Of a stretch of 64,000 nucleotides of DNA, positions 11,017-51,900 are shown piece by piece. Under the pieces are notes generated by a model. It saw only the letters and a program-made list of their open reading frames with translations. It had not been told where the DNA came from and ran no database searches. The DNA is from Mesorhizobium sp. CA8 (GTDB taxonomy: Bacteria; Pseudomonadota; Alphaproteobacteria; Rhizobiales; Rhizobiaceae), in the NCBI RefSeq assembly GCF_020164955.1, contig NZ_JAIUHG010000020.1, forward strand, positions 1 to 64,000, written 5' to 3'. Both the position numbers and the translations under genes were made by a program. How positions within the stretch are numbered: the first letter of the stretch is position 1; each line of letters begins with the position of its first letter.

Positions 11017-12206
11017 TCACTTGACGACTCGCAGGACAGTTCGCTGCTTCATGGCGTCTCGTTTGGCCTCGCGCTGATTGATTGCGCGAGCAATATCGAC
11101 CGCGATCCGCTTCTTGTTTGCCTCGCGCACATAGTCGTCTGTCACGGTCATCGAAGAATGCCCCATAGCCTCCATGATGGCGCGCGCCTGAACGTTGCAT
11201 TCAGCGAGGTATGTGCCGAAGGTGCGGCGCAGGCCATGGAGCGTGTAGCCGTCAGGGATCCCTGCTAGGCGCGTCCAATGCTGCATCATGCCGCTCAGGC
11301 TCTTTTCCGAGAACGATCGTTTGTAACCATTCTTCAAGACGGTGCCGCCTATCGAGCGGTCGAGCGGCTCCAACGCTTCAGCGAGTTGTCGACGACGGGA
11401 ATGAACATCTCCCTCCCTCCGTGACGATTGCGGTTCTTCTTCTGCCGGAAATCAAAGGCTTCGATCAGTTCCAGCGAGCCGTCGAAAAGTTCAATCTCCT
11501 CGGTGACAAGGTCCTCCCACTCCAACGCAGCAATATCGCCGCGCCGGTTTCCAAGCCAAAAGCCCAGCGCGTAACATGTGCGCGCTGCCGTGCCGATCGG
11601 ATGTCGTGCCTCGAACCTCTCGCGGACCGCGATCGGCCAGGCAGGGTTCTTGGACGATTTTGGCACGCGCACCCGGATGGAGAGCGATGGATCGTCTTGC
11701 GGCTTGATCCATTTCTCAATCTCGATCGCGACCCATAGCAGTTTTTTAATGGCGACCAGCATGTGCTTGGCGACAGTGCGGTTGGTCCCGAAGATGCCTT
11801 CGATGATGGTGCGAAGCCGATCCGCGTCGAGGTGTTCAACTGGAGTATCACGCCAGGTCAGCGGGAATTTGGGATCAACCTTCAGGTTGAGAAAGCGTTC
11901 GATCAGGCGCGCGTTTTTCTGCTGAGTCGCTTCATCAAAATCCAGCCATTCCATCGTGGTCTCAAGTCGACGCGCGGCGTGGCCGAAGGTCTTCGGCAGA
12001 GCTCGGCCAGGGAGGGCGATGATCGCCGCCTTCTTACCATGACCCTGCGTCGCCTTCTGGTATTCGGCTTCGAACTCCGCATCACCGGGATTACCGGGAA
12101 GTCGAATTTCGGGCATGCCCTTTGCCCGATAGCGATAAACGGTTTTGCCGTTCTTGATGCGCGAAGAGACACCGGGGTAGCGGGCATCCTTGAAGGGTCT
12201 GGCCAT
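11017..12206 (-). pseudogene. Tyrosine integrase interrupted by one frameshift
   Basis: Two overlapping minus-strand frames together make one site-specific tyrosine recombinase of about 395 residues. The upstream part starts at ATG 12206 behind an excellent GGAGGAGAG site and holds the arm-binding and core-binding regions, the first catalytic arginine (NRRGDIAALEW) and the beta-hairpin lysine region (FRQKKNRNRHGG). The downstream part holds HGLRRTFGTYLAE (the H-x-x-R motif), MGHSSMTVTDDYV (catalytic His and Tyr) and the C-terminus. The join is near 11388: one missing G in AACTCGCTGAAGCG would restore a continuous frame. As written the product loses three catalytic residues. A sequencing error is the main alternative to true inactivation. 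Confidence 0.85.
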
Positions 12207-12235
12207 TAAGCTCTCCTCCGGCACTTGAGCGACAG

Positions 12236-30229: not shown

Positions 30230-30958
30230 ATGTATGAACTCTTCCACAGGTTTGCCGAGCAGCTTACCGGCAGCGTTGACAAAGTGGATCTTCACGATGC
30301 CCTGGCTGAGACGGCTTCTTCGCTCGATATCCCGTTATTCGCCTACCTCTTCCCCTCGCTCCAGCTGGGCCGCGCGACGGATCTGATCTCCACCTATCCT
30401 CAGCCGTGGACGTCTCACTATCTTCACAGACGTTATGAAGATGTGGATCCAGTGGTTGATCAGGCGCGTCGTCGTCAGGAAATATTCCGCTGGGATGCGA
30501 ACGGCGGCGGCCTCGATTTGTCGCCTCCACAACGACGGCTGATGGATGAGGCGAACCAATTCGGCCTCCGCAGCGGATTTACGATCCCCATCCATGACCG
30601 CCGCGGTCTGTTTGCCGCTCTTACCTTCGCCTCCGATGAAAGGCAGCCACTGTTCTTCCGGGTCATTGACCGATATGAGCGCGCGCTGGAACTGATAGCC
30701 ATCTTCTTCCACATCCAGGCGCGTCGTAGGCTGACGACCGACCGAACGGTGGATGGAGTTGCTCTATCAAGTAGGGAAACTCAGTGCCTCCAGTGGGCTT
30801 CACAAGGCAAGTCAGCCTGGGAAATCGGCGAAATCCTGGGCATCAGTCAGCGCACCGCGGCCTTTCATCTCGACAACGCCAAGAAGAAGCTAGGCGTGCG
30901 GACCGTCACCCAGGCGGCCATTCGGTTTGCGATGTCCAAGCCATCGGACGACACGTAA
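30230..30958 (+). CDS. traR: TraR/LuxR-type quorum-sensing activator
   Basis: This 242-residue regulator has an N-terminal acyl-homoserine-lactone-binding domain with the conserved aromatic and acidic residues (SHYLHRRYEDVDPVV, IFRWDA, GFTIPIHDRRG). The C-terminal LuxR helix-turn-helix is LSSRETQCLQWASQGKSAW followed by ISQRTAAFHLDNAKKKLGV. With its ligand it should bind the lux box ten bases past its own stop codon and activate traI and the downstream frameshifted gene. Gene order matches the traR-traI1 locus of Mesorhizobium symbiosis ICEs. Confidence 0.93.
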   Translation: MYELFHRFAEQLTGSVDKVDLHDALAETASSLDIPLFAYLFPSLQLGRATDLISTYPQPWTSHYLHRRYEDVDPVVDQARRRQEIFRWDANGGGLDLSPPQRRLMDEANQFGLRSGFTIPIHDRRGLFAALTFASDERQPLFFRVIDRYERALELIAIFFHIQARRRLTTDRTVDGVALSSRETQCLQWASQGKSAWEIGEILGISQRTAAFHLDNAKKKLGVRTVTQAAIRFAMSKPSDDT

Positions 30959-30968
30959 AAACCTGATC

Positions 30969-30990
30969 AACCTGTATACATGCACAGGTT
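30969..30990 (+). promoter_or_regulatory. lux/tra box upstream of traI
   Basis: The element AACCTGT-N8-ACAGGTT is a perfect seven-base inverted repeat with the spacing and ACCTG/CAGGT cores of LuxR-family operators. It lies between traR and traI, ending 59 bases before the traI start, where it can activate the traI promoter. Confidence 0.85.
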
Positions 30991-31049: not shown

Positions 31050-31679
31050 ATGATGCTGCTGATTACACCGGACAGCTACGCTGAATTCGCCGACGAGCTC
31101 GAGGAGATGCACCGTCTGCGGCATCGTGTGTTCAAGGATCGGCTCGATTGGGATGTGTCGGTCGACAATGGCTACGAAGTCGACACCTTCGATGCGGGGG
31201 GCCGCCCTCATTATCTGCTGCTGAGGGCTCCGACCGGGGGCATCGATGGCTGCGTGCGTCTGTTGCCAACCACTGGCCCGACGATGTTGCGTGACAGCTT
31301 CCCCATCCTTCTTGGTGATCGCCGGGCGCCGGAGGATCCACGAATTTGGGAAAGCAGCCGTTTCGCGCTTGATGTTCCGACTTCCGCGCCGAAAGTGGCA
31401 GGCATAGCGCTTGCCACCTACGAGCTGTTCGCCGGAATGATCGAGTTCGGTCTGTCACGCGATCTGCGCAGCATCGTCACCGTGACGGATTTGCGCATTG
31501 AGCGGATCCTGCGTCGCGCTGGCTGGCCACTCGAGCGCCTGTCCGATCCGCGGACGATCGGCAACACCCGTGCTGTCGCCGGCTATCTCGACGTCTCTCC
31601 TGGCAGCCTGGCAGTCGTCCGAAGCAATGGTGGCATCAGAGGTCCGGTGCTTTGGGCACCGGCAATCAAGGTCCCCTGA
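31050..31679 (+). CDS. traI: TraI/LuxI-type acyl-homoserine-lactone synthase
   Basis: This 209-residue synthase carries the LuxI-family residues in order: R-H-R-V-F (MHRLRHRVFKDRLDWDV), the D-x-F-D region (EVDTFDAGGRPHYLLL), R-L-L-P-T (GCVRLLPTTGPTML) and the W-E-S-S-R-F-A block (IWESSRFALDV). It makes the AHL signal from S-adenosylmethionine and an acyl donor. Two ATGs in tandem (31050 and 31053) follow GAGGAGAGG. It is the first gene of the lux-box-driven transcript that continues into the fseA frames. Confidence 0.94.
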   Translation: MMLLITPDSYAEFADELEEMHRLRHRVFKDRLDWDVSVDNGYEVDTFDAGGRPHYLLLRAPTGGIDGCVRLLPTTGPTMLRDSFPILLGDRRAPEDPRIWESSRFALDVPTSAPKVAGIALATYELFAGMIEFGLSRDLRSIVTVTDLRIERILRRAGWPLERLSDPRTIGNTRAVAGYLDVSPGSLAVVRSNGGIRGPVLWAPAIKVP

Positions 31680-31719: not shown

Positions 31720-32013
31720 ATGGACGAGACAGATCTCGGTCCTGCCTATCCTGACTGGCAGGACAGCAGCACATATGACTATACGGCGCAGCTTACCAGC
31801 CGGGGTTGGGCCTGGGAGTTTCTAAGGCGCAATCATCATTTCCAGAACGATGTGGAGGACGCGCTTCGTCATGCGCACCGTTCTGAATTAACATCAGGAA
31901 CTTCCCTCACCGTGCTGTCGCCGCAGGATGTCGATCTTTCACGATGGGGGCTTCTTTTTTGCCAGCTCGATCCACAGTCATGCCAGCGTCTTCTGGAGCC
32001 CTGGCCTATGTAG
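31720..32013 (+). CDS. fseA: FseA upstream frame (msi172-like, DUF6499 part)
   Basis: This 97-codon frame begins MDETDLGPAYPDWQDSSTYD and contains RGWAWEFLRRNHHFQNDVED, the N-terminal domain of the ICE excision activator FseA. Read alone it ends at 32013 with an unrelated tail. At 31957-31960 it reaches a T6 run where a +1 shift would move ribosomes into the next frame. In ICEMlSym of Mesorhizobium this arrangement is known: msi172 and msi171 are joined by programmed frameshifting to make FseA, which activates rdfS. The order here (traI, this frame, the overlapping DUF2285 frame) is the same. Confidence 0.85.
   Translation: MDETDLGPAYPDWQDSSTYDYTAQLTSRGWAWEFLRRNHHFQNDVEDALRHAHRSELTSGTSLTVLSPQDVDLSRWGLLFCQLDPQSCQRLLEPWPM
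31951..31963 (+). promoter_or_regulatory. Candidate programmed +1 ribosomal frameshift site
   Basis: The zero-frame codons are CTT CTT TTT TGC. Slipping forward by one T after TTT gives CTT CTT TTT (T) GCC and continues as A-S-S-I in the downstream frame, exactly where the two halves of the FseA protein have to join. The six consecutive Ts (31955-31960) allow the P-site phenylalanine tRNA to re-pair. No other position in the overlap gives as clean a junction. Confidence 0.7.
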
Positions 32014-32533
32014 CCACGTGCTGCCTGTTGCCGCCGAACGCGCGCAACGCTCGCGCATTGCTGACGCCTTCGATCTCTCAGCGCTCTCTTGCCGGGTCTC
32101 CGTACTCCTTGCAGGGGATGGACACCAACAGGTCTTGTTCACCGATGGTGGCAGGACCCTCCAACTGACAGTCTCCGGCGCAACGCTCTTCGAGCCTGCG
32201 CGATTGACCGCCAGCGTCCTCTGGTCTCCTGCGGAGGTAAGGCAACGTCTGCATGGTCTTGAATGCTTGAACAACCTACGGTCGACCGGGAGGCTGCCCG
32301 CGAGGTTCTTTCCAGCGGAGCCCCGGCGTGTGCGGTTGCGCTGGGTTCTGCGCGCGCTCGACGGCTCCATTGCCGGCGCTCGGCATCGCGAGATCGGTGT
32401 CGGTTTGTTCGGGAAGGCCCGTGTCGATGGTGACTGGGCTGATCCCGGTGATCATCTTCGTGACATCGTGCGTCGAGCGGTCAGACGCGGGCGCTCGCTC
32501 ATGAACGGCGGATATAGGCAATTTCTTCTGTAG
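31961..32533 (+). CDS. fseA: FseA downstream frame (msi171-like, DUF2285 part)
   Basis: This frame supplies the C-terminal 190 residues of FseA: ASSIHSHASVFWSPGLCSHV, VSVLLAGDGHQQVLF, and the DUF2285 domain ending DIVRRAVRRGRSLMNGGYR. Joined to the upstream frame it makes a protein of about 270 residues. An internal ATG at 31928 in this frame could also give a separate product. DUF2285 is shared with the antiactivator QseM encoded on the opposite strand just downstream. FseA is expected to act at the promoter ahead of rdfS. Confidence 0.82.
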   Translation, partial: ASSIHSHASVFWSPGLCSHVLPVAAERAQRSRIADAFDLSALSCRVSVLLAGDGHQQVLFTDGGRTLQLTVSGATLFEPARLTASVLWSPAEVRQRLHGLECLNNLRSTGRLPARFFPAEPRRVRLRWVLRALDGSIAGARHREIGVGLFGKARVDGDWADPGDHLRDIVRRAVRRGRSLMNGGYRQFLL

Positions 32534-32546
32534 CGGCTCTGGCCAT

Positions 32547-32867
32547 TTAGTCTGCGAACAGCTCCTTATACCCGCTGGTGATTAGCCAGTGCGTCCTGTC
32601 CAGATGGCTACGGACAGCCTTGCGGGCGCGAGTTGGCTCCTGCCTTGGATCGATGCCCAATACGGTCTGCGCCATCTCCTCCTCGCTGGCATTGTCGGCG
32701 CACGCGTCGAGGAGCCTGAGATAGACCGCAAAATGCTCGTTGTCGTAAGCGGTCAGGCTGTCCGCCCAGGGGACTTCATCCGCAACGGCAATGGCTTGAT
32801 TAAGCGCCTGATGTGGTCTGTCTTCCAACTCTCGCCTCGTCTTACACTCGAACTCTCTTCCACCCAT
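32547..32867 (-). CDS. qseM: QseM-like antiactivator (DUF2285)
   Basis: The 106-residue protein has a C-terminal DUF2285-type domain (LRLLDACADNASEEEMAQTV, ending HLDRTHWLITSGYKELF), which parallels the end of FseA (SLMNGGYRQFLL). In ICEMlSym, QseM binds TraR and FseA and blocks excision and transfer in most cells. The ATG at 32867 (MGGREFECKTRREL) is next to the divergent promoter with QseC-type operators. The gene converges on fseA and is divergent from qseC, as in the characterised locus. Initiation at a later codon is possible because the first residues are poorly conserved in style. Confidence 0.8.
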   Translation of the reverse strand: MGGREFECKTRRELEDRPHQALNQAIAVADEVPWADSLTAYDNEHFAVYLRLLDACADNASEEEMAQTVLGIDPRQEPTRARKAVRSHLDRTHWLITSGYKELFAD

Positions 32868-32879
32868 ACGCGCGCATTG

Positions 32880-32912
32880 TATCCTAAACTGGGATAATCC
32901 GAAACTAGGATT
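32880..32912. promoter_or_regulatory. Two overlapping QseC-type operators between qseM and qseC
   Basis: TATCCTAAACTGGGATA (32880-32896) and AATCCGAAACTAGGATT (32896-32912) are 17-base dyads, each with five-base arms (ATCC/GGAT core) around seven bases, sharing one base. Their centres are 16 bases apart. They lie in the divergent qseM/qseC promoter region, matching the known control of this switch by the QseC repressor. Confidence 0.75.
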
Positions 32913-32949
32913 AGTCGGTGAGCCGGTTCCTTCCTGACCGGTTCGCCTG

Positions 32950-33186
32950 ATGCCAAGATCCCTTCGATCGCCTCGCCAGCTTCGCCTGTTGAAAGAGCTG
33001 GTAGCGGCGCGCAAGAACAAAGGCCTGACCCAGTCACAGGTCGCCGAAGTCCTTGGCCGTCCGCAATCCTTCGTAGCTAAATATGAAGGCGGCGAACGCC
33101 GCTTGGACGTCATTGAATTTCTCGACCTCACCGAGGTTCTCGAAATCGATCCGTGCGAGCTCCTCGCTCAAGTACGTCGGCTGTGA
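32950..33186 (+). CDS. qseC: QseC-like XRE repressor
   Basis: This 78-residue protein is almost entirely a Cro/CI-type helix-turn-helix: LLKELVAARKNKGLTQSQVA, VLGRPQSFVAKYEGGERRL, DVIEFLDLTEVLEIDPCELL. In Mesorhizobium ICEs QseC represses qseM and its own gene through the operators between them, producing an on/off switch for quorum-sensing-activated transfer. Its ATG is 37 bases from the nearer operator. Confidence 0.85.
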   Translation: MPRSLRSPRQLRLLKELVAARKNKGLTQSQVAEVLGRPQSFVAKYEGGERRLDVIEFLDLTEVLEIDPCELLAQVRRL

Positions 33187-37836: not shown

Positions 37837-38017
37837 TCGGCAGTGCCGAGAGCCCCTCGCGCCGCGGGCGCGGGGGCTTTCGCCCGGCCGGAATTCCAGC
37901 TGGACAGAGCCGCCCGAAGGGGCGGCGAAAACTCCCGACCGACTCTTCGCCCGTCCCGCAGACGCTCTCGCTCGCCGATCCTCGCTGTCGCCTTCCATCG
38001 GCGAAACGAGGATCATC

Positions 38018-38257
38018 ATGGACGACGAAAACGAACGCGCCGCCCGCGCCAAGAAGGGCAGCCCGTTTCTCAACACGGCGCAGGCTGCCTTCTATATCGG
38101 CCTTTCCCAACGGACCTTGGAAAAGATGCGGATCAAGGGCGCTGGCCCGAAATTCCGCAAGCACGGCCGCTACGTCCGCTACCACATCGACGAGCTCGAC
38201 GAGTGGTCGAAAGGCCGCCAGAACGAGACCGGTTCCACTGATGGAGGCCGCTCATGA
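38018..38257 (+). CDS. rdfS: RdfS, recombination directionality factor
   Basis: This 79-residue helix-turn-helix protein has the AlpA/excisionase layout (LNTAQAAFYIGLSQRTLEKM, then GPKFRKHGRYVRYHIDELDE). It directly precedes traF and is coupled to it by an ATGA overlap, the same arrangement as rdfS-traF in ICEMlSym, where RdfS turns the integrase toward excision and is activated by FseA. The promoter should lie in the 181 bases between the DUF736 gene and the ATG at 38018. Confidence 0.82.
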   Translation: MDDENERAARAKKGSPFLNTAQAAFYIGLSQRTLEKMRIKGAGPKFRKHGRYVRYHIDELDEWSKGRQNETGSTDGGRS

Positions 38258-38802
38258 GCTGGCGTCCATCCATCCATCTGATAGGCAGTAGGCTACGGAG
38301 AGTTCGCGCCCGAAAAGTGATCGCCGCGACGGCGCTTAGCCTGGGTCTCATTGCTTTTACGGCCTTCGCCAGACCAACGCCCTGGCTCGTCTGGAACGCC
38401 TCGGCCAGCGCGCCGATCGGCCTCTATCGCGTCGTCGCTGGAGCGCCAGCGCGTGGCGATCTGGTGCTCGCCCGCGCACCGGAATTCATCGCCGGTCTCG
38501 CCGCTGATCGCGGCTATCTGCCTCGCAATGTGCCGTTGGTAAAGCGCGTTGCCGCGCTGCCGGGCGAGCACGTCTGCGCCTTCAACGAGGCGATCATCAT
38601 TGGCGGAAAAATCGTCGCGCGTCGGCTCGCGACCGACGGCCAAGGCCGAGCGCTGCCTTGGTGGAACGAGTGCCGCGTGCTCTCAGCTGACGAGCTTTTC
38701 CTGCTGAACGGCGAGGCCCCTCGCTCCTTCGACAGCCGGTATTTCGGGCCGGTGTCGTCCGAAAACATCATCGGGAGGCTCGAGCCGTTATGGACCGAGT
38801 GA
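38254..38802 (+). CDS. traF: TraF, conjugative S26-type signal peptidase
   Basis: This 182-residue membrane peptidase has one N-terminal helix ([18 protein letters not shown]). The S26 catalytic serine is in [14 protein letters not shown] and the general-base lysine in [15 protein letters not shown]; the closing motif is [17 protein letters not shown]. IncP-type TraF processes the pilin for the mating-pair apparatus. It is translationally coupled to rdfS and overlaps the transglycosylase gene by 13 bases. Confidence 0.9.
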
Positions 38803-39475
38803 CCCTTCTGATGCTCGGCATGATCGCCGTCGCGCCATGCGCCTGTTCCGCCTCAACCGGCGCTGAGTCGGTGGCCATCTCCATAAGTCCACAGCTTGGA
38901 AAGTGGCAGCACTTCGTAGCTGAAGCAAGCCAACGTTTCCGTGTGCCCGAAATATGGATTTACGCCGTTATGGAGGCCGAGAGCAGCGGCAGGACCCTGC
39001 TCTATGGGCGTCCGATTACCTCGCGCGCTGGCGCTATGGGCCTCATGCAGGTGATGCCCAAAACCTATGATCAGATGCGCATCGAGCACGGTCTCGGCGC
39101 CGATCCCTATGATCCGCGCGACAACATTCTGGCCGGAACCGCCTATCTGCGCGCCATGTATGACCGCTTCGGGTCCCCGGCTTGTTCGCCGCCTACAACG
39201 CAGGGCCGGAGCGTTACGACGATCATTTGCAGCGCGGTCGACCGCTGCCGTCCGAGACGGTCGGCTATCTTAGAAAGCTCAATGCGGCCGGGGTTTCGGC
39301 TGCGGATTTGGATGAATTCGGAGGCAAATCTCCGCCCGCTAAGTCGCCGAAAGCCTCATCCGGGCGGTCGCTCTTCTTCCTGCGGGACGGTCTTTCTGTG
39401 GGCAGCCTGAACAGCGAAATCCTAGTCCCGCTTAGATCGGATCAAGCGGGATCGGAGCAGCCGGACAGCAGGTGA
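38790..39475 (+). pseudogene. Lytic transglycosylase broken by one frameshift
   Basis: The first frame, from ATG 38790, has a hydrophobic leader and the SLT-type catalytic region ([13 protein letters not shown] with the catalytic glutamate, then [16 protein letters not shown] and [18 protein letters not shown]). At about 39179 a G is missing. The next frame continues exactly with [17 protein letters not shown] and [14 protein letters not shown], the second half of the domain. The uninterrupted protein would be about 228 residues. Such enzymes open the cell wall for the conjugation channel. A sequencing slip in CCCCGG is possible; taken at face value the gene is inactivated. Confidence 0.8.
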
Positions 39476-39539
39476 GAGCAGGGCGGCGGGCTTGATTGGA
39501 GGCGGGCGAGGGCAGGTTCGCGGAAGGCAAGATAAAGGG

Positions 39540-39558
39540 ACCGCCTCCCGGAGGCGGT
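39540..39558. repeat. Hairpin upstream of the relaxase gene
   Basis: ACCGCCTCC and GGAGGCGGT form nine-base arms around one C. The hairpin lies between the transglycosylase and the relaxase gene, 105 bases before its start. Relaxase genes of this family usually have oriT nearby, so this intergenic dyad is a candidate part of oriT, but a terminator-like role is equally possible. Confidence 0.45.
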
Positions 39559-39662
39559 CAAGTCTTTGTCTGCACATCGTTTTTGCCGGAGGCTGTTCGC
39601 GTGCCTTGGAGGCTGTTGGCCACAACCCTTTGATCTGGCGCGAGATTTCCAGGAGGCTTCAC

Positions 39663-41627
39663 GTGAAGGAAAACGAGTTCACGCCCAGACTTGGCAAGAT
39701 CCGGTCGAATGCCTCCAAGGCCGGCAAGCGCTACGCAAACCAGCTTCGGTCGGCGATCAATCGGGCAGGGGGCAAATATCAGCGTGGCGGCCGCTTCACC
39801 GGAGGCAGGACAGGGCGCGGCGGAGCGGCCGCTGCGCTGCTCAAGTCACGTGACCGCTACGCTGCTTTCCGGCAGCGCCGGGTGATGGTGAAGGCGCGCA
39901 TCGTCAAGCTGGTCGGCAAGGGTGTTGACGGGGCGCGTGCGCATCTGCGCTATCTCCAGCGCGATGGTGTCACGCGCGAGGGAGAGCCGGGCGAACTCTA
40001 TGGCGCAGAGAAGGATCGCGCCGACGGCACGGAGTTCCTCGATCGCGCCCATGGCGATCGGCACCAGTTCCGGTTCATCGTCGCGCCCGAGGATGGCATC
40101 GATTATGACGACCTCAGGCCGCTGACCCGACGCCTCATGGCGCAAATGGAAAAGGACCTCGGCACCAAGCTCGACTGGGCCGCCGTCGATCATTTCAACA
40201 CCGGTCATCCGCACACCCACATCATGGTTCGCGGCAAGGACGATTGCGGCGAAAATCTCGTCATCGCGAGGGAATACATTTCGTCTGGTTTGCGAGAGCG
40301 AGCGGCCGAACTGGTCAGCCTCGATCTCGGCCCACGCACCGACCGCGAGATCGAGCTTCGCCTGCGCCAGGAAATGGAGCAGGAGCGCTTCACCAGCGTC
40401 GACCGGCAGTTGCTGCGTGTGCGTGACGGTGACGGCTTCGTCTCGCCGGTCAGCCGCGATGCGTTTCGCCAGACGCTGCACCAAGGCCGTCTGCGCAAGC
40501 TGGAACGCATGGGACTTGCCGAGGAGACCGCCCCGGGTCGTTGGCGGCTGGACGAAAGGCTCGAAGCAACGCTGCGCCGCATTGGAGAGCGCGGCGATAT
40601 CATCAAGACCATGCATCGCGAACTGACCAGCAAGGGGCTCACGCGCGGTGCCGATTGTGTTGTCTACGATGCGGGGCAGAATACCGAACCCATGGTCGGC
40701 CGCGTTATTGCGCGAGGGCTGGCCGATGAAATCAATGACCGCCATTACCTCATTGTCGACGGCCTAGATGGCAAGAGTCACTATATCGACATCGGCAAAG
40801 GCGAGGCCACCGATCCGACGCCTGACAATTGCATCGTCCGTGTCAGGCCTCGGAACACCGAGCCCAGACAGGTCGATCGCACCATCGCCGACACCGCCGC
40901 GGCCAATGGCGGGCGCTACAACGTCGACATTCATCTGAAACATGACCCTTCCGCCACCGAACGCTTTGCCGAAACGCACGTCCGACGGCTCGAGGCGATA
41001 CGCCGTGCCACCGGTGGCGTGGAGCGCCAGCCAGACGGGACTTGGATCATCGCGCCGGATCATCTCCAGCGTGTCTCCGACTACGAGCGCCAGCGGGCGA
41101 GGGCGGAGCCTGTCGTTGTCGACAAGCTCTCGTCGATGGTGCTGGAGAAGCAGGTCAGTTTCGACGGCGCGACCTGGATCGACAGGGAGCTGGTTTCGGA
41201 TCGGCCGGAGGCATTGCGCGATTCCGGCTTCGGACGCGAGGTGCGGGAGGCGCAAGCCCGCCGGCGGCAGTGGTTGATTGCGGAAGGTCTGGCGCGTGAA
41301 GAGCAGGACCGGATCGTCTATCGCGCCAACATGATTTCGGTCTTGCGCCAGCGCGAGCTGAACCGTGTGGCGAGTCAGTTCTCGGATGAGCTCCGTCTCT
41401 CGTATTCCGAAGCGAAGCCGGGAGATCGGGTAGACGGGACGCTGCGCCGTTCGGTCGAGCTTGCCAGCGGCAGGTACGCCGTGATCGAGAAGTCACGCGA
41501 GTTCACACTCGTGCCGTGGCGGCCGGTGCTGGATCGGCATATGGGCAAGCAGGTGACTGGGATCGTACAGAGAGAGGGGATTTCGTGGACGATTGGACGG
41601 CAAAGGAGTGGCCCGAGCGTTTTGTGA
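39663..41627 (+). CDS. rlxS: RlxS, VirD2-like conjugative relaxase
   Basis: This 654-residue relaxase has an N-terminal domain with RAHLRYLQRDGVTREG, HQFRFIVAPEDGIDYDDLRP and the histidine triad region DHFNTGHPHTHIMVRG, then DUF3363-type sequence (HVRRLEAIRRATGGVERQ and further to VPWRPVLDRHMGKQVTG). The GTG at 39663 follows AGGAGG by seven bases and gives the expected N-terminus (KENEFTPRLGKIRSNASK). It nicks the element at oriT and pilots the single strand. Gene order rdfS-traF-transglycosylase-rlxS is the ICEMlSym order. Confidence 0.9.
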   Translation: MKENEFTPRLGKIRSNASKAGKRYANQLRSAINRAGGKYQRGGRFTGGRTGRGGAAAALLKSRDRYAAFRQRRVMVKARIVKLVGKGVDGARAHLRYLQRDGVTREGEPGELYGAEKDRADGTEFLDRAHGDRHQFRFIVAPEDGIDYDDLRPLTRRLMAQMEKDLGTKLDWAAVDHFNTGHPHTHIMVRGKDDCGENLVIAREYISSGLRERAAELVSLDLGPRTDREIELRLRQEMEQERFTSVDRQLLRVRDGDGFVSPVSRDAFRQTLHQGRLRKLERMGLAEETAPGRWRLDERLEATLRRIGERGDIIKTMHRELTSKGLTRGADCVVYDAGQNTEPMVGRVIARGLADEINDRHYLIVDGLDGKSHYIDIGKGEATDPTPDNCIVRVRPRNTEPRQVDRTIADTAAANGGRYNVDIHLKHDPSATERFAETHVRRLEAIRRATGGVERQPDGTWIIAPDHLQRVSDYERQRARAEPVVVDKLSSMVLEKQVSFDGATWIDRELVSDRPEALRDSGFGREVREAQARRRQWLIAEGLAREEQDRIVYRANMISVLRQRELNRVASQFSDELRLSYSEAKPGDRVDGTLRRSVELASGRYAVIEKSREFTLVPWRPVLDRHMGKQVTGIVQREGISWTIGRQRSGPSVL

Positions 41628-42267: not shown

Positions 42268-42285
42268 ATGGACGTGGGGGATGAT

Positions 42286-43836
42286 ATGGATGGAGCACTG
42301 AGAACTCGCAAAGTGATCTCTGAGCAACGGCGTTATTGCGAGGCCAAAGCGCGAGACCGAAACCTAAATCTATTCGTCCCCGAAGCATTCATCCGCGGCA
42401 TCAGGCATATCGGATACAAGAGCAATCTGGAGGCGCTCTCCGAACTCGTCGACAATTCAATCCAAGCCTATTCGGAACGGGTAGATCTGCTCTTCAACTT
42501 CGCGAGCGAGGGATCAACTGCTAGGCCGACCCAATTGGCAGTTGTCGATGATGGACATGGAATGGCACCTGCAATGTTGCGGTTTGCCATGATGTGGGGC
42601 GGGACTCACAGAGAGAATGATCGCGAAGGTCTGGGAAGGTTCGGATACGGGCTTCCCTGCGCGACCGTCAGCATGGGGCGCCGTTTCTCGATCTATTCGA
42701 AAGTTGAACGCGGCGCGACCCACGTTGTCACTCTTGATCTCGATCTGCTCGATAACGACGCCTACCGAAACAACGATGGCGAATTGGAAATCCCACCAGC
42801 GCGTCGCGCCCACTTGCCAGACTTTGTTAGCAACGCACTTGCGCAAAGCCATCCGGGTGGATGGAAGTCCGGAACGGTCGTGGTCATAGACAAGTTGGAC
42901 CGCCTGGACTGGACCACCGCGGCGGGCCTGCGTCGCAATCTGGTCCGGCATTTCGGGGTCGCCTATCACAAGCTGCTTCGGGCGACGTCGATCTACATCG
43001 ATGGGGAAAGGGTCCGTCCAATCGACCCGCTGTTCCTGTCCCCTGACGCCGAACTATTTGGCCTGGACGAAGATCACGCTCATGCGCTCGATTCGGTCAC
43101 CATGACGATAGATGGTGAACTGGGTGATGCGCGCGGATCAGTGACGCTGCGGTATGCATGGCTGCCGCCTTCTTTTGGCGCGATTGATAAGAGCCGCGAC
43201 GCAATCGGCATCAACGCCAATTCGCGATTCCCCATCCTGAAGCACTATCACGGCATCATCTTCAGCCGAAATGGACGGATCGTGGACATTCAGAGTCGGA
43301 CGCCTTGGACGACGTTCATCAACAACGATCGATATATCCGCGTTGAGATCGAGTTTTCCGCAGGCCTAGACGAGGCGTTCGGTGTCACCACCGCGAAGCA
43401 GCAGGTGTCGCTTTCGCGCGAGATGTGGGACTTGCTTCGCGCGGCCGGCTTGCCCAAGGCAATCGAACATCTGCGGCAAAAGGTGCGTTCTGCGAAAGCA
43501 GACCGCACAACTGCTTCGCGACCTGCTGTCGCGTCGACCTCCACCTCGGTGGTCGCCTCTCCCTCAAGCACGAAATCTCATGCAATCGAACCTGCCTCCC
43601 CACTGGATGTAAAGGTTCTGACTGGCCGCATACTTCGAGAGTTTGCGCCTGAAGCCGCCCTGGATGCTCTCTTGGCGAAAATCCTTGTCCGGATTAGGCT
43701 CGGTCGCGCTGAACACGCCGCCGACTATGACAGCTTGCTGAGAGAATGGGCTTCCGACATGCGCGCTGGCCACCTGCCGCTGCCGGCTGGCGCAGAGGCG
43801 CCGAAAGTGACAGTGAAGACCCGTGGGCGGTCGTAA
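42286..43836 (+). CDS. MORC-like GHKL ATPase of a predicted defence operon
   Basis: This protein of 516 residues (522 if the ATG at 42268 is used; 42286 has GGGGGA upstream) carries the Bergerat ATP-binding fold: EALSELVDNSIQAY with the catalytic Glu and Asn, VVDDGHGMAP, and GRFGYGLPCATVSMG as the glycine lid. A second domain with TAKQQVSLSREMWDLL could supply the transducer lysine. The C-terminal quarter is low-complexity and then helical. The short linkers and DNA-related company recall the MORC-like/MutL-like ATPases described in predicted restriction systems. It leads the rightward operon and is 11 bases from the next gene. Its probable role is an ATP-driven DNA clamp or sensor. Confidence 0.75.
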   Translation: MDGALRTRKVISEQRRYCEAKARDRNLNLFVPEAFIRGIRHIGYKSNLEALSELVDNSIQAYSERVDLLFNFASEGSTARPTQLAVVDDGHGMAPAMLRFAMMWGGTHRENDREGLGRFGYGLPCATVSMGRRFSIYSKVERGATHVVTLDLDLLDNDAYRNNDGELEIPPARRAHLPDFVSNALAQSHPGGWKSGTVVVIDKLDRLDWTTAAGLRRNLVRHFGVAYHKLLRATSIYIDGERVRPIDPLFLSPDAELFGLDEDHAHALDSVTMTIDGELGDARGSVTLRYAWLPPSFGAIDKSRDAIGINANSRFPILKHYHGIIFSRNGRIVDIQSRTPWTTFINNDRYIRVEIEFSAGLDEAFGVTTAKQQVSLSREMWDLLRAAGLPKAIEHLRQKVRSAKADRTTASRPAVASTSTSVVASPSSTKSHAIEPASPLDVKVLTGRILREFAPEAALDALLAKILVRIRLGRAEHAADYDSLLREWASDMRAGHLPLPAGAEAPKVTVKTRGRS

Positions 43837-43847
43837 AGGGGGAAGTC

Positions 43848-45869
43848 ATGGCAGAATATGAGCTTGATCGGTTGAATTTACGGCCGTTCACGCCGTTTCT
43901 TGCCCCCGAGGAACGTGAGGAACTCCACGAGCTTCTCAACTTTACTGGACCGACACCTCCCGGTTTCGCGCAGAGTCTTCGCAAACTTGCCCGAAGATAT
44001 GTGGACGAGGGCGATAGCAGCAAGCTGCGCGCCATCTGCCTGCTGGTGGCGGACCTTCTGGATCAAGGGTGGCATGTCGCTTTCGAAGGAAATGGGCTGC
44101 ATTTCAAAGCGCCTGGAATCGAAACGAGCCCCGACCAGACTGTCGACGATATCAAGCTTCGAATTCGATCCGCCCTCCAACTCGCTCGCCGTCGCCAGTT
44201 GTCCGAACCCTCCGTGGCGAACTTCATCAAACGGATGGGGCGGCGGACGCTGCGTAAGCCAGGCGTGCGCAGTTCTGTGCTCGATCTCATCGATGATGGG
44301 GCAGCGCTAGGGGACGATCTGGAAGCGATCAATCAACTGCCGGCGGCCGACCGCGATGTAGCTCTCGCACGATTGATCGATCCGGTGGTCGAGGTTTGCC
44401 AAGCGGGAGCGAAATGTTCTGAGACTGGGCTGCCGTTAAACGAAATCTGGCGTTACTTCCGTCATACCTGGGCGCACGAGTATCGTCCGATTCCCGGGCG
44501 CCAGTTGCTGGTTTTGATCAGAAACGCCGCGCGCTCAGGACGACCCGTCATGGGAATCGCGATGCTGGCGAGTCCCGTCATGCGGCTCTCGGCGCGAGAC
44601 AACTGGATAGGTTGGCTGCGGGAGTCGACAGAGAAAAATCTCCGGTCGGGTCTGTGGGACCCCGCATGCCTCGCGGAGGCTTTCCTCGATCGACTGAATT
44701 CGTCGATTGAGGAGGTCCGTTGGGACGACCTGGCGCGGCCGGACGAGATCGAAAGCCCGAGCGAGAACACGATCCTGCGCCTCGAGCAAAAGGCGTCCGG
44801 CGCCGCGTATGCGCGGGATCTCGAATTGAAGGTACATTACCAAACCAGCCTTCAAGAGGGGGATCGGGTTCGCCCGATGCGCGGAGCCGTCAAGGTGGTC
44901 GGGGCCGATACCGATTGGGTCAGGGCTTCCGAAGACCTGCTCTTCGTGCGGAAGAGAGCCGAACTGCTCGCTCAACTGCTGTTCGCAAAGCAAATGTTTC
45001 GGGCGGCCGACCTCGATTCAGATCCCTCGTCCGCCCTCGACCAACTTCTTTCCGCAAGAAGCGGACAGCGTGCCATCGACATTGTGCTGACCGAGTTTAG
45101 AAAGGCCGGACTTTCCAGCCGCGTGGCCGACGTAAGCATCTGTGGAGCGGTCGCTCCTTACAATGAACTGCTTGGCGGCAAGCTCGTGGCCCTCTTGCTG
45201 GCGTCCAAGGAGGTCCGAGATCATTATTCCAAACGATACGGCGGCCAGGTGAGTGTGATCGCGTCGCAGATGGCCGGACGAGCGATCTCGAAGCCTGCTG
45301 ACTTGTGCGTCCTCACGACGACCAGCCTCTATGGGGTAGGATCGAGTCAATACAATCGGCTCAGCCTCCGGGCGATCGAGCACGAGGGTTTGACGCACGA
45401 TCTACGATGGGACTCGATCGGGCGGAGCAAGACCGGTGGCTTTGGCACGCTGCATCTCGGCCAAGATACCGCCCACGCCCTTCGGCTAATGGCGCAGAGC
45501 CTGCACACCTCTCGCCGCGTGAACAACCGGTTTGGTGAGGGCACAAGCCCGCGCCTGCGACAGATCAGGGAGGGGCTGGACGCACTAGGCATCGCAAGCC
45601 ATAGCATTCTCCACCATGCCACCCCTCGGTTATTCTACGCCTGCGAACTCAGTGGAAGCTCGCGAAATTCGCTAATGAGCCTGGCATCGATCGAGACCCA
45701 CGCCGCCTCCGCCGATGCGATCTCGGCAGCATGGCGGCGTCGATGGCTGGACGGTCGCGTTCGCCGCGATGCGACCATAGCCGCGGTGAAGGTCCTCGGC
45801 CCGGAAAGCGTGCAGCGCAGCTTGAACGCCGAGCCGATGATCGACCTACTAACTGCGCTTGGCGAATAA
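43848..45869 (+). CDS. DUF4338/DruA-like protein
   Basis: The 673-residue protein has an N-terminal helical region, a central block with IWRYFRHTWAHEYRPIPGRQ, then RPVMGIAMLASPVMRLSARD followed by NWIGWL, and a later block with ICGAVAPYNELLGGKLVALL, VSVIASQMAGRAISKPADL and TTTSLYGVGSSQYNRLSLR. I associate these with DUF4338, the domain of the Druantia protein DruA, although this form is longer. The start ATG 43848 follows AAAGGGGGAAG. DruA-type proteins are part of an antiphage system whose core is a DUF1998 helicase like the next gene. The assignment is from memory of motifs and should be tested by profile search. Confidence 0.6.
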   Translation: MAEYELDRLNLRPFTPFLAPEEREELHELLNFTGPTPPGFAQSLRKLARRYVDEGDSSKLRAICLLVADLLDQGWHVAFEGNGLHFKAPGIETSPDQTVDDIKLRIRSALQLARRRQLSEPSVANFIKRMGRRTLRKPGVRSSVLDLIDDGAALGDDLEAINQLPAADRDVALARLIDPVVEVCQAGAKCSETGLPLNEIWRYFRHTWAHEYRPIPGRQLLVLIRNAARSGRPVMGIAMLASPVMRLSARDNWIGWLRESTEKNLRSGLWDPACLAEAFLDRLNSSIEEVRWDDLARPDEIESPSENTILRLEQKASGAAYARDLELKVHYQTSLQEGDRVRPMRGAVKVVGADTDWVRASEDLLFVRKRAELLAQLLFAKQMFRAADLDSDPSSALDQLLSARSGQRAIDIVLTEFRKAGLSSRVADVSICGAVAPYNELLGGKLVALLLASKEVRDHYSKRYGGQVSVIASQMAGRAISKPADLCVLTTTSLYGVGSSQYNRLSLRAIEHEGLTHDLRWDSIGRSKTGGFGTLHLGQDTAHALRLMAQSLHTSRRVNNRFGEGTSPRLRQIREGLDALGIASHSILHHATPRLFYACELSGSSRNSLMSLASIETHAASADAISAAWRRRWLDGRVRRDATIAAVKVLGPESVQRSLNAEPMIDLLTALGE

Positions 45870-45954
45870 GGACAATCGGGGTGAAATTTCTTAGCCTTAC
45901 GCGGCAAAGAATCAAAAACTAAAGGGGCGGGATAAGCGGGGGATTGGGGGGCAC

Positions 45955-48900
45955 GTGCGTACCGAAATTGAGCACATGAGGGAGGCGCTCGCTTCCTATA
46001 TTGAGGCGACCTATCATCTGTCTGATCCGAAGGTCGTCGCATTGCGGCGAAAGCTGCTGACTGATCATGGTGTCGCGCAGACACCGTTCATCGAAAGCAC
46101 CCCGAGCTACGCCGGTCACCGCAAATATGCGGACCTCTCTCTGCCAAAGGGTGTGTCCGCTTTCCTTACCGACCTAGCCGAAAAGGCCGAGGATCTGCTT
46201 TTCAACCCACCGTACGAGCACCAGGCGCAGGCGCTCGAAGACACGACTCGTTCGGATGCAGCAGGAAGTGGGATCGTCGTAACGACCGGCACCGGCTCCG
46301 GCAAGACTGAGAGCTTCCTACTGCCTGTGCTTGCGCGCCTCGCTGACGAGGCGCTCAACAGGAAAGCGCATTTTGAGACGCGGGCGGTGCGCGCATTACT
46401 GCTTTACCCGATGAACGCGCTGGTTAACGATCAACTGGGGCGCCTGCGAAACCTATTCGGTGCGCCGTCGGTGCGACGGGCCTTCAAAAGTGCCGGCGGT
46501 CGACCGGCGAAATTCGGGCGTTACACTGGGCGCACGCTGTATCCGGGATTTCGGAGTGCGGACCGCGATCGGGAGCGTCTGAAAACACTCGGCTATTACC
46601 TGAAGATCGAAGACGCTGCTCGCGCGGGGAGTTCTAAGGATCAGGAACTCGTCGAGACGCTCCGGGCAAAAGGCAGGTGGCCGGGAAAGCCAGACAGTTT
46701 CATAGGCGCATATGATGGCCTGCGGAACTGGTACGGCAATTCGGGCCAACACTGGGAGGATGCAAGTGGCCAGCCCGCCCGTGCGATTGAGCAACTCGAC
46801 GATCCCGAACTGCTGACCCGGCACGAAATCCAGGAGGCCTGTCCCGACCTGTTGGTCACGAACTACTCGATGCTGGAGTACATGCTCCTGCGTCCGCTTG
46901 AGCGCGAAATATTTGGAGAAACCCGCGCCTACTTCGAGGCCCACCCTGAGGAGAAGTTCCTCCTCATTTTGGATGAGGCGCACCTCTACCGAGGCGCGAA
47001 TGGCACGGAAGTCGCCTATCTCATCCGTCGGCTCCTGGACCGACTGGGACTGCCTCCGTCGCGTGTTATCTTCATAGCGACGAGCGCGTCGTTCTCGAAA
47101 GACGAGCGCGCGAAGGAATTCGTAGCCGGACTTTGCGGTCTTGAGCCCAAGGCCATCCGCCGGCTGACCGGAAGCAAACATGCTGTCGATGTGGCAGGTG
47201 CGGGGCCTACCGATTTGGCGAACCAATTGGCCACTGTACCGCTGGATGCTCTACACTCGCCGGATCTTCGGGACCGCTCCGGCGTCGTCGCACCGTTAGC
47301 GTCGCAGCGTTCCGGCCTATCCGGCAACCGCGTCACGTTAAAGAGGATCGACAGCGGCCTCGAGGCTGCATCGGTTACGATCGGTGGGCTCGATCTGCGC
47401 GGCCGTCGCTTCGAGGAAGCCGTCGTTGTCGAACCTGGCGGCGAAGCGCATTCTCAAGAGCCGTTCCTCATTGTCGACACGGTTTTGTCCCCCGAGGGAC
47501 GGGTCAGCGTGGCAAGATGTTATCCGCTGGGCGAAGCGGATGCCGAAGGCTTTCGCAATACCGCGGACGATCTGCCCGCAGCCCTTTTCGAGATTTTGGC
47601 GCCTCTTCCGGTCGTTGGTCGCCTCCGGAATATTACGAGCGGTGCCGAGAATCCCGCTGACCCCGTCGACGTGCCGGGCGCCGCATGGGCCGTGACAGAG
47701 TTGCCCGGCGCGCTTTTTACCGACAGCTCGAACGGCGTCGCGGCGACCGATGCGCTGCTCGAATTAGCATCGCTCGCCAAGCCTGCGCCCGACAAACCGC
47801 CGCTGCTGCCCGCTCGTGTCCACATGCTCTTTCGCGGTCTGCCCGGCTTGTGGGCTTGCGCCAACCCAGACTGCGACCAGATCGACCCTTCCTATCGTGG
47901 GGGGCCGACGGGGAAGCTATACTCCGAGCCCCGCCGCAGTTGCGACTGCGGATCGCAGGTCCTTGAACTTCACAGTTGTCGGTCGTGCGGACTATCGGTG
48001 GCCCGCGCTAACATAGGAGCACCTGCGGGCACGGAGCATCTCTGGCAGGACAACGGCTATGCCTATGCCGGTGACACAGGCCTGATCGAGCCCGTCCACG
48101 TTTGTCTCGAAAACCCGAAGCCACAAGTGGCGGGGACCGTCCGGCCCGTGTACCTCGATCTCGCAACCGGAAAGATCGACGGTGGTGGCACGTTCGTTCG
48201 AGAGGTGTGGCTCGCGCCGCTTCTCGGCTCGAAGCTATTCGAGAAATGCCCGCGTTGCGGCGCTAATTGCGACCCGTCCTCCTCGAACGGAATTTCTGAT
48301 CTTCAGACCAAAGGCGAGCAACCCTTTCAGGAACTGATCTCGGTTCAGGTGCTCGAGCAGCCTCCGAGGCCCGATAGCGATACGCCTCTTCAAGGGCGAA
48401 AGGCGTTGGTGTTCTCAGACGGCCGCCAAACGGCGTCCCGCTTGGCCGGTACCCTAAAAACCTTTTCCTTCCGCGACAGTCTTCGGCCGCTGTTGCTGGC
48501 GGGCATGTCCGCCTTAAAGCAACCTGCGTTCATCCCCTCGCTCGACGATGCGCCTCTCGCGATCGCGCTTGGGGGCGCCCGTCACGGGGTACGGTTGCGT
48601 CCAAGCGGCGCTGAAGACGGCCGGATGGATCGGGCGGGGCGGCACGCCATCGGCTTAATCCGAAGTCCCGACGCGGACGCCGAAGATTTCCGGCAACTCA
48701 CCAACCAGACCAGCGCTGATACGCCGCTCTCTGTTTTTCAGAGCATCTACGCTGTGCTCCAGGACGAGCACACGGGTATCTTCCCCCTCGCCCTCGCAAC
48801 CCTAAAAGCAAAGTTGACCAAGATCGAGGCGGACAAGCTGAATGCGGCCGTCGCGTTGCCAACGATCCCCGGGTTGAGTGATGAAGAGGCGCGTGCGGCC

Positions 48901-51900
48901 CTTGTCGAGCTCTGGCTTTGGCAAGCCCTGCACAAGCACGCAATCCGATTGCGCGACACGCCTGACAATGTCGAAACGGGCCGCGGATCGTCGGGCATCC
49001 GCGCGTGGAACGGCAAATTCTCCAAGAAGTTTACAACGCTGCTTGAAGCACGCGGCCTCAAGCAATGGCTGAAAGGCGATTTTGCCAGTTCGGTCGGCCC
49101 AGCGCTGCGCGATGTGTTTTCGCCGAACGTTACTGGTGATTTCTATGTGCAGGGCGCCAAAGTCGCACTTGAGCTGAATCCCGCCACTCAGTGGATTCGC
49201 TGCGAGCGCTGCACGACGGTATCGCCACGCAACGCCTTGATCGGCGACCGCTGCACGAGTTGCACCGGAAACGCGCATCCCATTGATCCGGCGCACGATC
49301 CAGTGTTTCGAAGCAGAAAGGCGTTTTTCCGTAGGCTATGGGAGAGGCTGAGCGATCCCGCCGACGGTTATGCTCCACATCAACTGATTGCCGAGGAGCA
49401 TTCGGCCGCTCTCAATGATAGCGGCATGGCCAACGCAATGTCGCGAAACGAGGCCTACGAGCTTCGATTCCAGGATATTCCGATCGAGCAAGATGGGCAG
49501 GTGGGTGCGCCCATCGACATCCTGAGTTGCACTACCACGATGGAGGTTGGCATCGATATTGGCGGGTTGACAGCGGTCGCCCTCCGGAACGTCCCGCCGG
49601 GACGAGCGAACTATCAACAGCGCGCCGGTCGCGCCGGCCGACGTGGTGCCGGGCTTTCGACCGTCATTATGTTCTGCGGCGCGGACAGTCACGACCAGAC
49701 CTATTATCGCGACCCTGGACCGATCGTGGCGGGGCCGGCGCCAGACCCGATCCTCAATCTCGACAACGTGGTTATTGCGAAGCGCCAAGCGTTCGGGTTC
49801 TTAATCGGCCGGTTCCAACAGGATCGGATCGATGACGTCTCTAGTGCCTCGGACGTCTTTTCGTCCCTCGGCTCCGTCTCCGATTTTGTCAATGGCGCTG
49901 AGGAGAGCTTTTCCCTGGCCGGGCTGCGAGCCTGGCTGTCGTTCAATCAGGAATCGCTTGAAGCCGACATCGAGCGTTTATTCGTGCAATCCTGCCCAGC
50001 GCTTGACGCCAAGGGTGTGCTCGATGACCTTCCGCGAGTACTCGAGGAAGCTCTCATCAAACCGGATGAGGGAATCCCAGCGGAGCCCGTAGCCGCGGCT
50101 GACGGGGACGACGATTATTCCGATGAGATCTTGGAGGACGGGAGCGAAGAGGACGTTCCTCCCGTCAGAGATGGGCGTCTCCTCGATCGGTTGTTCGCCG
50201 AGGGATTGCTCCCCAAGTATGCGTTCCCGACAGATGTCGCCGCTTTCAGCGTATTTGAGGACGACACTGATCCCTGGCGCCCCAAGCGTCGATATTCACC
50301 GCAACAAGCGCTCAACGCGGCGCTCAGTCAGTATGCACCAGGTCATGAGGTCTGGGTCGATGGTAAGCGCTTCCTGTCCCTCGGCATTTACGCCGAGCGT
50401 GATAGTGACAGGCTCGACGCCTACCGTGCTCGCAAGCTTTATTATCAGTGCAGGGTTTGCAACTACGCCGATCTGCTGGATTGGTCCGACGGCTATGTCG
50501 ACCAGACCCGAGATTGTCCGGCCTGCAGCGGCCGGGCCACGTTGGGGCCGGCACGGCGCTGGGTTCGGCCGCCCGGCTTCTCGCATCCTCCGACCATAAC
50601 CGCGCTCCCTCCGGATTTCGACGCGGGGATGCGTCTCCGCCCAACAAAGGCGACTCTCGACTCCATGACATTCACGCCGAGCTCGCGCATCGGTGGCGCG
50701 ACTTGGCCGCTCGGGACGAGTTGGGAGGCATGGAGCGAGAGCAAGAATCTCGTCGTCACCAATCGCGGATCTCTTGATGCTGCGAATCCGGCATTCAACT
50801 ACTGCACGCAGTGCGGCCGGATTGAGCCTGCGAATTTTGATCCCACGATGCGACAGCTTTTCGGCAAACAGCCGCATGACAGGCCACGCCCCCGGCGCCC
50901 CAAGGAGCCCGAACAGTGTACGGGCTCGGTGCTGAAGATCGTCCTTGGGAATGAGTTTAGGACTGATGTCGCAGTGTTTCGCCTGGGGCTGCCGGTCGGC
51001 TGGCGGTTTGATCCGGATCGGCCTTCCACCGTCATCGCAGCGCGATCAGCGGTCGAAGCTCTCCGCCGCGCGGCTTGCCAACTCGAAGATCTTGAGCCCA
51101 ACGACATCGATGGGGACTTCCGGTTTGCTCCGGCGAGCGGCGATCAACAGTTCATGGATCTCTATCTCTATGATCAGGCAGCCGGCGGCGCCGGCTTCGT
51201 GAAGGCAGCCTCCAAAGACCCGAACCGGTTGGTCAAACGTGCAATCGAACTGCTCGATGACTGCACCTGCGACGATAGCTGCTACCAGTGCCTACGGTCG
51301 TACAAGAATCGGTTCGACCATGCGATGTTCGATCGCTTTATCGGCGGTGATCTGCTGAAGGCGTGCTTCGGGGGACAACCGCTCACCATTGCTGTCAAAC
51401 GTGAAGACGAAGCGCTCGATCGGCTGGGTCGCGACCTCCTGGAAAGCGATGCGAAGTTTACCCGCGTCGACGGAGGGCTCGTCGAGGAAGATGGCCGGAT
51501 AGTCTGCCTTTCGCACCCCTTCATCGATGGCGAGCCGTGCTCGTCGCGAGCTCAAGCGCTCGCCAATGGCCAGGTGGTGGCGGCCGTCGACATCCTGATG
51601 GTTCTGCGCGCCCTACCGATCGCCACCAATATCGCGCTTGTCGGACCAGTAACGACAAGCACGAGCACTCTCGCCTTCGACCCCAACGGGACGCCTGAGC
51701 TGGATGCATCGCTGGTCATCGCCGGGAATCTAGCCGGCGATTCCGGAACGCCAAAATATGCAGTCGCCGGTGCGGGGACAAACGACCTGCTTTTCCGGGT
51801 TAGAGGAAATATGCTCAGCGGCAAGAATGGGGATGGTCAAGGTAGCGCGGTTCAGAGCGGTGCTCTCTGTCTGTTCAGACCTTCAAGCGACGCACCTGGA

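What the first reader, a model, noticed from the sequence alone, without database searches (positions are those of the whole stretch)
31720..32533. FseA split over two frames with a T6 slip site
The two frames encode the halves of the ICE excision activator. The only clean joint is CTT CTT TTT TGC, where a +1 slip in the T6 run passes from one frame to the other. In ICEMlSym such frameshifting is a known brake on transfer. The conserved arrangement here indicates a functional brake despite damage elsewhere in the element.
Basis: partly seen in the sequence, partly recalled or inferred. Interest (0 to 1): 0.7.

Follow-up and report, generated by a model that had tools for sequence, protein, structure and literature searches.

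The report
FseA excision activator, known ribosomal frameshift
A soil-bacterium mobile element carries its excision-activator gene split over two reading frames that ribosomes probably join by a rare slip, the same transfer brake already described in a related element, so this is a clear but ordinary new example.

Summary
Two overlapping frames (31720-32013 and 31928-32533, the second +1) encode the DUF6499 and DUF2285 halves of FseA and meet at TGG GGG CTT CTT TTT TGC. This is the FseA +1 programmed ribosomal frameshift published for ICEMlSymR7A and reported as conserved in the family, here in a Mesorhizobium element with traR-traI and a lux/tra-type box upstream, antiactivator qseM beside it, and an FseA-type box before rdfS.

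One point is corrected. The conserved signal is not the T6 run (7 of 146 slip sites) but the Phe codon UUU followed by C or U: 146 of 148 distinct +1-split sequences, window included. Of the two exceptions one is a misplaced joint in a deleted copy; the other has TGT. Other Phe codons in the same genes are TTT in 204 of 734. Stops in relatives confine the frame change to codons CUU UUU UGC, and among 24 near members only the window has an ATG for an independent start of the second half, so slippage is favoured over two proteins.

No fused product was measured. Verdict: new member of a known kind, low interest. A CGA codon before UUU in other subfamilies, and copies put in frame by upstream indels, are minor leads.

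The parts
31720..32013 (+). msi172-like frame: DUF6499 half of FseA (motif WAWEFLRRN), 97 aa to its own stop
31928..32533 (+). msi171-like frame (+1): DUF2285 half of FseA; the ATG at 31928 is probably not used
31945..31962 (+). recoding site TGG GGG CTT CTT TTT TGC; slip codon TTT 31957-31959, T6 run 31955-31960, SD-like TGGGGG 31945-31950
31050..31679 (+). traI-like acyl-homoserine-lactone synthase, upstream of fseA (start inferred)
30230..30958 (+). traR-like LuxR regulator (Autoind_bind + GerE)
30970..30989 (+). lux/tra-type box ACCTGT-N8-ACAGGT, centred about 70 bp upstream of the traI ATG
32547..33131 (-). ORF holding qseM (lone DUF2285 antiactivator); residues 114-193 match solved QseM 7uqt, so the true start is probably further in
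32950..33186 (+). qseC-like helix-turn-helix regulator (named by position and HTH domain)
37924..37951 (+). FseA-type box GGCGAA-N16-TTCGCC
38018..38257 (+). rdfS, recombination directionality factor, target of FseA
38254..38802 (+). traF-like signal peptidase S26
38790..39410 (+). msi107-like transglycosylase (SLT; name by position)
39492..41627 (+). rlxS-like relaxase (DUF3363; name by position)

Best explanation
This is fseA of a Mesorhizobium ICE-type element. Quorum sensing (TraR with the AHL made by TraI) transcribes traI-fseA. Most ribosomes read the DUF6499 half and stop at 32011-32013. A minority, with Phe-tRNA in the P site on UUU (31957-31959), slip one base forward to UUU (31958-31960) and continue GCC AGC TCG in the +1 frame to make the 270-aa FseA (WGLLF|ASSIHS). 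FseA then binds its box before rdfS and switches on excision and transfer genes; QseM blocks FseA. The slip rate therefore sets a brake. Shown here: gene parts, frame relation, conserved slip codon, box and target genes. Inferred: that slippage happens in this strain, its rate, and the regulatory steps (established for ICEMlSymR7A in the literature).
For: Domains; fused reading with no stop; 153 of 169 N-half matches have the C-half in +1; 146 of 148 distinct sequences have TTT then C or T; of 102 cluster representatives 100 have TTT and none TTC, against TTT in 204 of 734 other Phe codons of the same genes (Fisher 7e-50); stops in near relatives confine the switch to codons -2 to 0 around the slip; a profile of 6 naturally one-frame homologues puts the best joint at 0 or +1 codon in 59 of 99 representatives and within -4..+7 in 97 of 99; purifying selection on both halves against 6 relatives; FseA-type box in all 30 rdfS loci examined, window included; RdfS and QseM match solved proteins 8dgl and 7uqt; literature.
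Against: No peptide or reporter data. For the window alone the one-frame profile gives a plateau (best at +4, 126.5 bits; +1 at 124.6; the slip itself was not among the 8 best printed). 7 homologues are naturally in one frame, so frameshifting is not obligatory for the family. No 3' stimulatory structure in the window (z 0.78). Some +1-split copies are themselves interrupted after the slip (L009, L155; L175), so the site alone does not prove a working gene.
Confidence: 0.93

Rival explanations
1. Ordinary pseudogene: one FseA frame broken by a recent indel or an assembly error in a T run.
For: The T6 run is a typical place for indels; an integrase on the contig is broken.
Against: 148 distinct sequences (window included) share the same +1 offset, 146 at the same TTT codon, and both halves are under purifying selection against 6 relatives.
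Confidence: 0.02
2. Two separate proteins: the DUF2285 half starts on its own ATG (31928) and works as a second subunit.
For: An ATG lies 11 codons before the slip in the +1 frame. PMC9601964 (passages) argues for separate genes in Azorhizobium.
Against: Of 24 near members only the window, and of 100 representatives 17, have an ATG in the +1 frame in the 20 codons before the slip; 48 of 100 have a +1-frame stop there. GTG or TTG starts remain possible in 28 of 100. TTT-Y conservation would be unexplained.
Confidence: 0.03
3. Transcriptional slippage on the T6 run rather than ribosomal slippage.
For: The window has six T in a row.
Against: 117 of 146 sites have only three T, too short for polymerase slippage by general knowledge; the +1 frame would need loss of one base or gain of two.
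Confidence: 0.02

Closest known systems
FseA (msi172-msi171) of ICEMlSymR7A, Mesorhizobium japonicum R7A
   Same: DUF6499 + DUF2285 halves in two frames, +1 joint next to WGL (UGGGGG), QS genes upstream, inverted-hexamer box before rdfS-traF-msi107-rlxS-like genes, QseM antiactivator.
   Different: No R7A fseA nucleotide record was examined, so the slip site was not compared with R7A base by base. My box lies 67-94 bases before the rdfS ATG; the paper's logo has the near hexamer at 62-67.
FseA-type DUF6499-DUF2285 activators of proteobacteria (Jowsey 2023, PMC10359603: 4709 homologues, about 61% split by a +1 PRF; passages, Discussion and one results section seen)
   Same: Same domains and same kind of +1 joint.
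   Different: Near relatives of the window mostly have CTG, CTT, TTG or ATT before UUU; across all representatives CGA is the commonest codon there (54 of 100).
RovC of Yersinia (PDB 6xz5)
   Same: Distant sequence match (E 1.4e-6 for the whole protein), mainly in the DUF2285 half; the N-half stretch, which crosses the joint, is weak on its own (9.4 bits).
   Different: One chain; described in PMC10359603 as a distant activator.
prfB (RF2) +1 frameshift
   Same: SD-like G-rich stretch shortly before a +1 slip (prfB features recalled).
   Different: No stop codon in the A site in any of 148 distinct sites; the G stretch is 6 bases before the slip codon here, 3 in prfB (recalled).

Membership tests
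FseA family with +1 PRF | N-terminal DUF6499 with an AWEFLRRN-like motif | tested here: met
   PF20109 E 1.9e-13; WAWEFLRRN
FseA family with +1 PRF | C-terminal DUF2285 in the +1 frame | tested here: met
   PF10074 E 2.1e-20; frames
FseA family with +1 PRF | conserved slip site next to WGL / UGGGGG | tested here: met
   TGG GGG CTT CTT TTT TGC
FseA family with +1 PRF | FseA box (two inverted hexamers, 15 or 16 bp apart) upstream of rdfS | tested here: met
   GGCGAA-N16-TTCGCC at 37924 (1 exact match in the window; 0.52 matches with up to one mismatch expected) and in 30 of 30 rdfS loci, 16 or 17 bp apart. I took the hexamer letters from this sequence; the paper text gives only the geometry.
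FseA family with +1 PRF | TraR/AHL control of transcription | tested here: inconclusive
   traR, traI and a lux-type box are present; binding not testable
FseA family with +1 PRF | fused polypeptide made by ribosomal slippage | not testable with these tools
   needs reporter or mass spectrometry
prfB-type +1 frameshift | in-frame stop codon in the A site at the slip (recalled) | tested here: not met
   A-site codon is TGC here; CGC, CCC, TGC and others, never a stop, in 148 sites

The most novel reading that the evidence does not exclude
The recoding signal is composite and tuned by subfamily: UGG-GGN, then in many subfamilies a CGA codon that sits in the E site when Phe-tRNA is on UUU, so loose E-site pairing helps the +1 slip. 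The window's clade lacks CGA and may slip at a different rate, making brake strength an evolving trait of each ICE family; a copy such as L074 may have left the brake altogether through an upstream indel.
Probability: 0.25. Interest if true: 0.4.

Novelty: new member of a known kind. Interest (0 to 1): 0.2.

Why it matters
It adds a well-conserved case to a known translational brake on gene transfer, and shows which part of the site is conserved (UUU-Y, not a T run), which helps annotate such split genes correctly.

Tried and rejected
Pseudogene or assembly error: rejected by the shared joint. Independent start of the second half: disfavoured. Transcriptional slippage: disfavoured by T3 sites. 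A 3' RNA structure as stimulator: none in the window. T6 as the signal: rejected. An early idea that L068, L074 and L077 had lost the TTT slip codon (noted) was wrong: all three keep TGGGG..TTT, and the frames are joined by an upstream indel; L077 has a further break nearer its start, and the protein match of L068 ends at residue 242 of 270. Ramsay 2015 (PNAS) and Ramsay and Ronson 2015 were not held; what they show is taken from later papers or recalled.

Limits of the sample: the loci were the best-scoring ones plus 80 stretches that I picked by hand from their lists, not a random draw; the N-half profile was built from 90 sequences chosen for W..F at the joint (amino acids, not codons); the 24 near members were picked by hand from the list and include the window. 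Dropped rows: L003, L004 and L066 (copies of the window). Of the 11 same-frame matches, 7 are natural one-frame homologues, 3 have the upstream indel, and 1 (L076) has its C-half match starting late in another frame, so it is probably broken. One of the 7, L129, was left out of the one-frame profile because of an internal deletion. dN/dS: 10 relatives were named; L071 was absent as a duplicate; for L083, L153 and L127 synonymous change was saturated in at least one half; the ratios quoted are for the other 6.

Full report
What is there. Its genus is Mesorhizobium by inference: the genus search (146 genomes) includes a genome whose contig has the same length, 351,911 bases, as M. japonicum plasmid NC_002679, and the named relatives are M. 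kowhaii and M. metallidurans. Frame 1 from ATG 31720 runs to a stop at 32013; the +1 frame runs from ATG 31928 to 32533. The first carries PF20109 (DUF6499) and the motif WAWEFLRRN, the second PF10074 (DUF2285). Reading TTTT as one Phe gives an unbroken 270-aa protein...DLSRWGLLF-ASSIHSHASVFW.... The joint is TGG GGG CTT CTT TTT TGC at 31945-31962.

What is conserved. I collected homologues from whole genomes of the order and genus (DUF6499 family in 61 of 297 and 131 of 146 genomes; a P0001 match in 133 of 146), took their best loci and 80 further hand-picked stretches, and located both halves with profiles. Of 169 N-half matches, 153 have the C-half in the +1 frame, 11 in the same frame, 2 (one locus, L169) in the other frame, and 3 have no C-half in reach. 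Without the copy of the window (L066), 152 loci gave 148 distinct sequences, window included: 146 have TTT at the aligned codon, followed by C (132) or T (14). The exceptions are L110 (TGT in its place) and L175 (a deleted copy in which my joint fell on the wrong W). Among 102 cluster representatives, 100 have TTT and none TTC, while other Phe codons in the same genes are TTT in 204 of 734 (Fisher 7e-50; related sequences, so the p-value is not literal). The run of T containing the codon is 3, 4, 5 or 6 long in 117, 10, 12 and 7 of 146. So the signal is UUU-Y: Phe-tRNA can pair with UUU and, one base on, with UUC or UUU. The T6 of the window is incidental beyond its last four T. The 43 sequences nearest to the window (itself included) all have TTT, with C next in 34 and T in 9.

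Where the frame changes. In 24 near members (window included) there is no 0-frame stop in the 20 codons before the slip and no +1-frame stop in the 20 codons after it. Two of them, L067 and L075, have a +1-frame stop three codons before the slip, and two others have a 0-frame stop at the second codon after it; if the site is the same in all, the change lies in codons -2 to 0. A profile made from 6 homologues that are naturally in one frame puts the best joint at the slip or one codon later in 59 of 99 representatives and within -4 to +7 in 97 of 99; for the window alone it is a broad plateau with its best at +4. Only the window among the 24, and 17 of 100 representatives, have an ATG in the +1 frame in the 20 codons before the slip. 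Both halves are under purifying selection against the 6 relatives with usable distances (dN/dS 0.22-0.39 and 0.17-0.23).

Other signal parts. GGG is the Gly codon in 69 of 94 representatives with Gly there, against 217 of 1561 Gly codons elsewhere, which fits the UGGGGG noted by Jowsey et al. (Discussion seen). CGA precedes the slip in 54 of 60 representatives with Arg there, against 289 of 2995 Arg codons elsewhere. The words CGA, UUU and slippery do not occur in the main text of PMC10359603; one search for FseA with 'CGA codon' and 'ribosomal frameshifting' listed no paper on this beyond the review PMC5009743, where I did not look at the CGA passage, and papers on CGA-CGA frameshifting in yeast (listing only). 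The 2015 paper was not available, so I do not claim that it is unreported. The window itself has CTT there. No unusually stable RNA structure follows the slip in the window (z 0.78).

The circuit. Upstream are a TraR-like regulator and a TraI-like synthase with ACCTGT-N8-ACAGGT at 30970-30989 (exact; 2 matches with up to 2 mismatches in the window against 0.87 expected). qseM lies on the other strand beside fseA and matches solved QseM 7uqt (E 1.1e-37). rdfS (38018) matches solved RdfS 8dgl (E 1.6e-41), is followed by signal-peptidase, transglycosylase and DUF3363 relaxase genes, and has GGCGAA-N16-TTCGCC at 37924. I read these letters from the window and then tested them: the box is in 30 of 30 rdfS loci held (the best-scoring, window included; 28 with 16 and 2 with 17 bases between the hexamers), and the window has 1 exact and 3 one-mismatch matches against 0.52 expected in all. 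The traG-trb cluster lies further on in the same contig; Pfam names 9 of the 10 genes tested, the tenth (position of trbJ) has no match. So the parts of the transfer circuit that I looked for are present. Damage on the contig: a tyrosine integrase in two frames at 11017-12224 and two other partial integrase matches; whether the first is this element's integrase was not shown.

Known or new. The R7A frameshift, its conservation and its role are in print (PMC10359603: passages, Discussion and one results section; PMC5882170, PMC5009743 and PMC11963761: passages). This locus is a new member. The published statement that Azorhizobium's counterparts have individual start and stop codons and no frameshift (PMC9601964, passage) would be worth rechecking with the UUU-Y rule; I did not do so.

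Noticed in passing
L001 (G000 contig C24), about 50.8-51.5 kb: A second split fseA in the same genome, slip site TGG GGT TTG CAG TTT CGC; another DUF2285 copy on C31 lies at the contig edge, so its first half cannot be seen.
   Followed up: partly
L068, L074, L077: Relatives whose two halves are in one frame because of an indel upstream of a still intact TTT slip site. L074 could be a brake-free copy with a changed linker; L068 and L077 look damaged elsewhere too.
   Followed up: partly
slip sites of other subfamilies (e.g. L007, L012, L037): Arg codon CGA directly before the slip UUU in 54 of 60 representatives with Arg there, against 289 of 2995 Arg codons elsewhere.
   Followed up: partly
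window 11017-12224 (-): Tyrosine integrase in two overlapping frames (291 and 118 aa; Pfam match only in the second), probably a pseudogene; another partial integrase beside groEL near the other end of C13.
   Followed up: partly
window 42268-57620: Defence island between rlxS and traG: DruA1 and DruE1 of Druantia, a NERD-helicase, and a DpdE/BrxH-like helicase.
   Followed up: partly
   Followed up: no
L132, L135: Naturally one-frame homologues that still read TGG GGC TTA CAG TTT CTT at the joint; a slip there would leave the frame.
   Followed up: no
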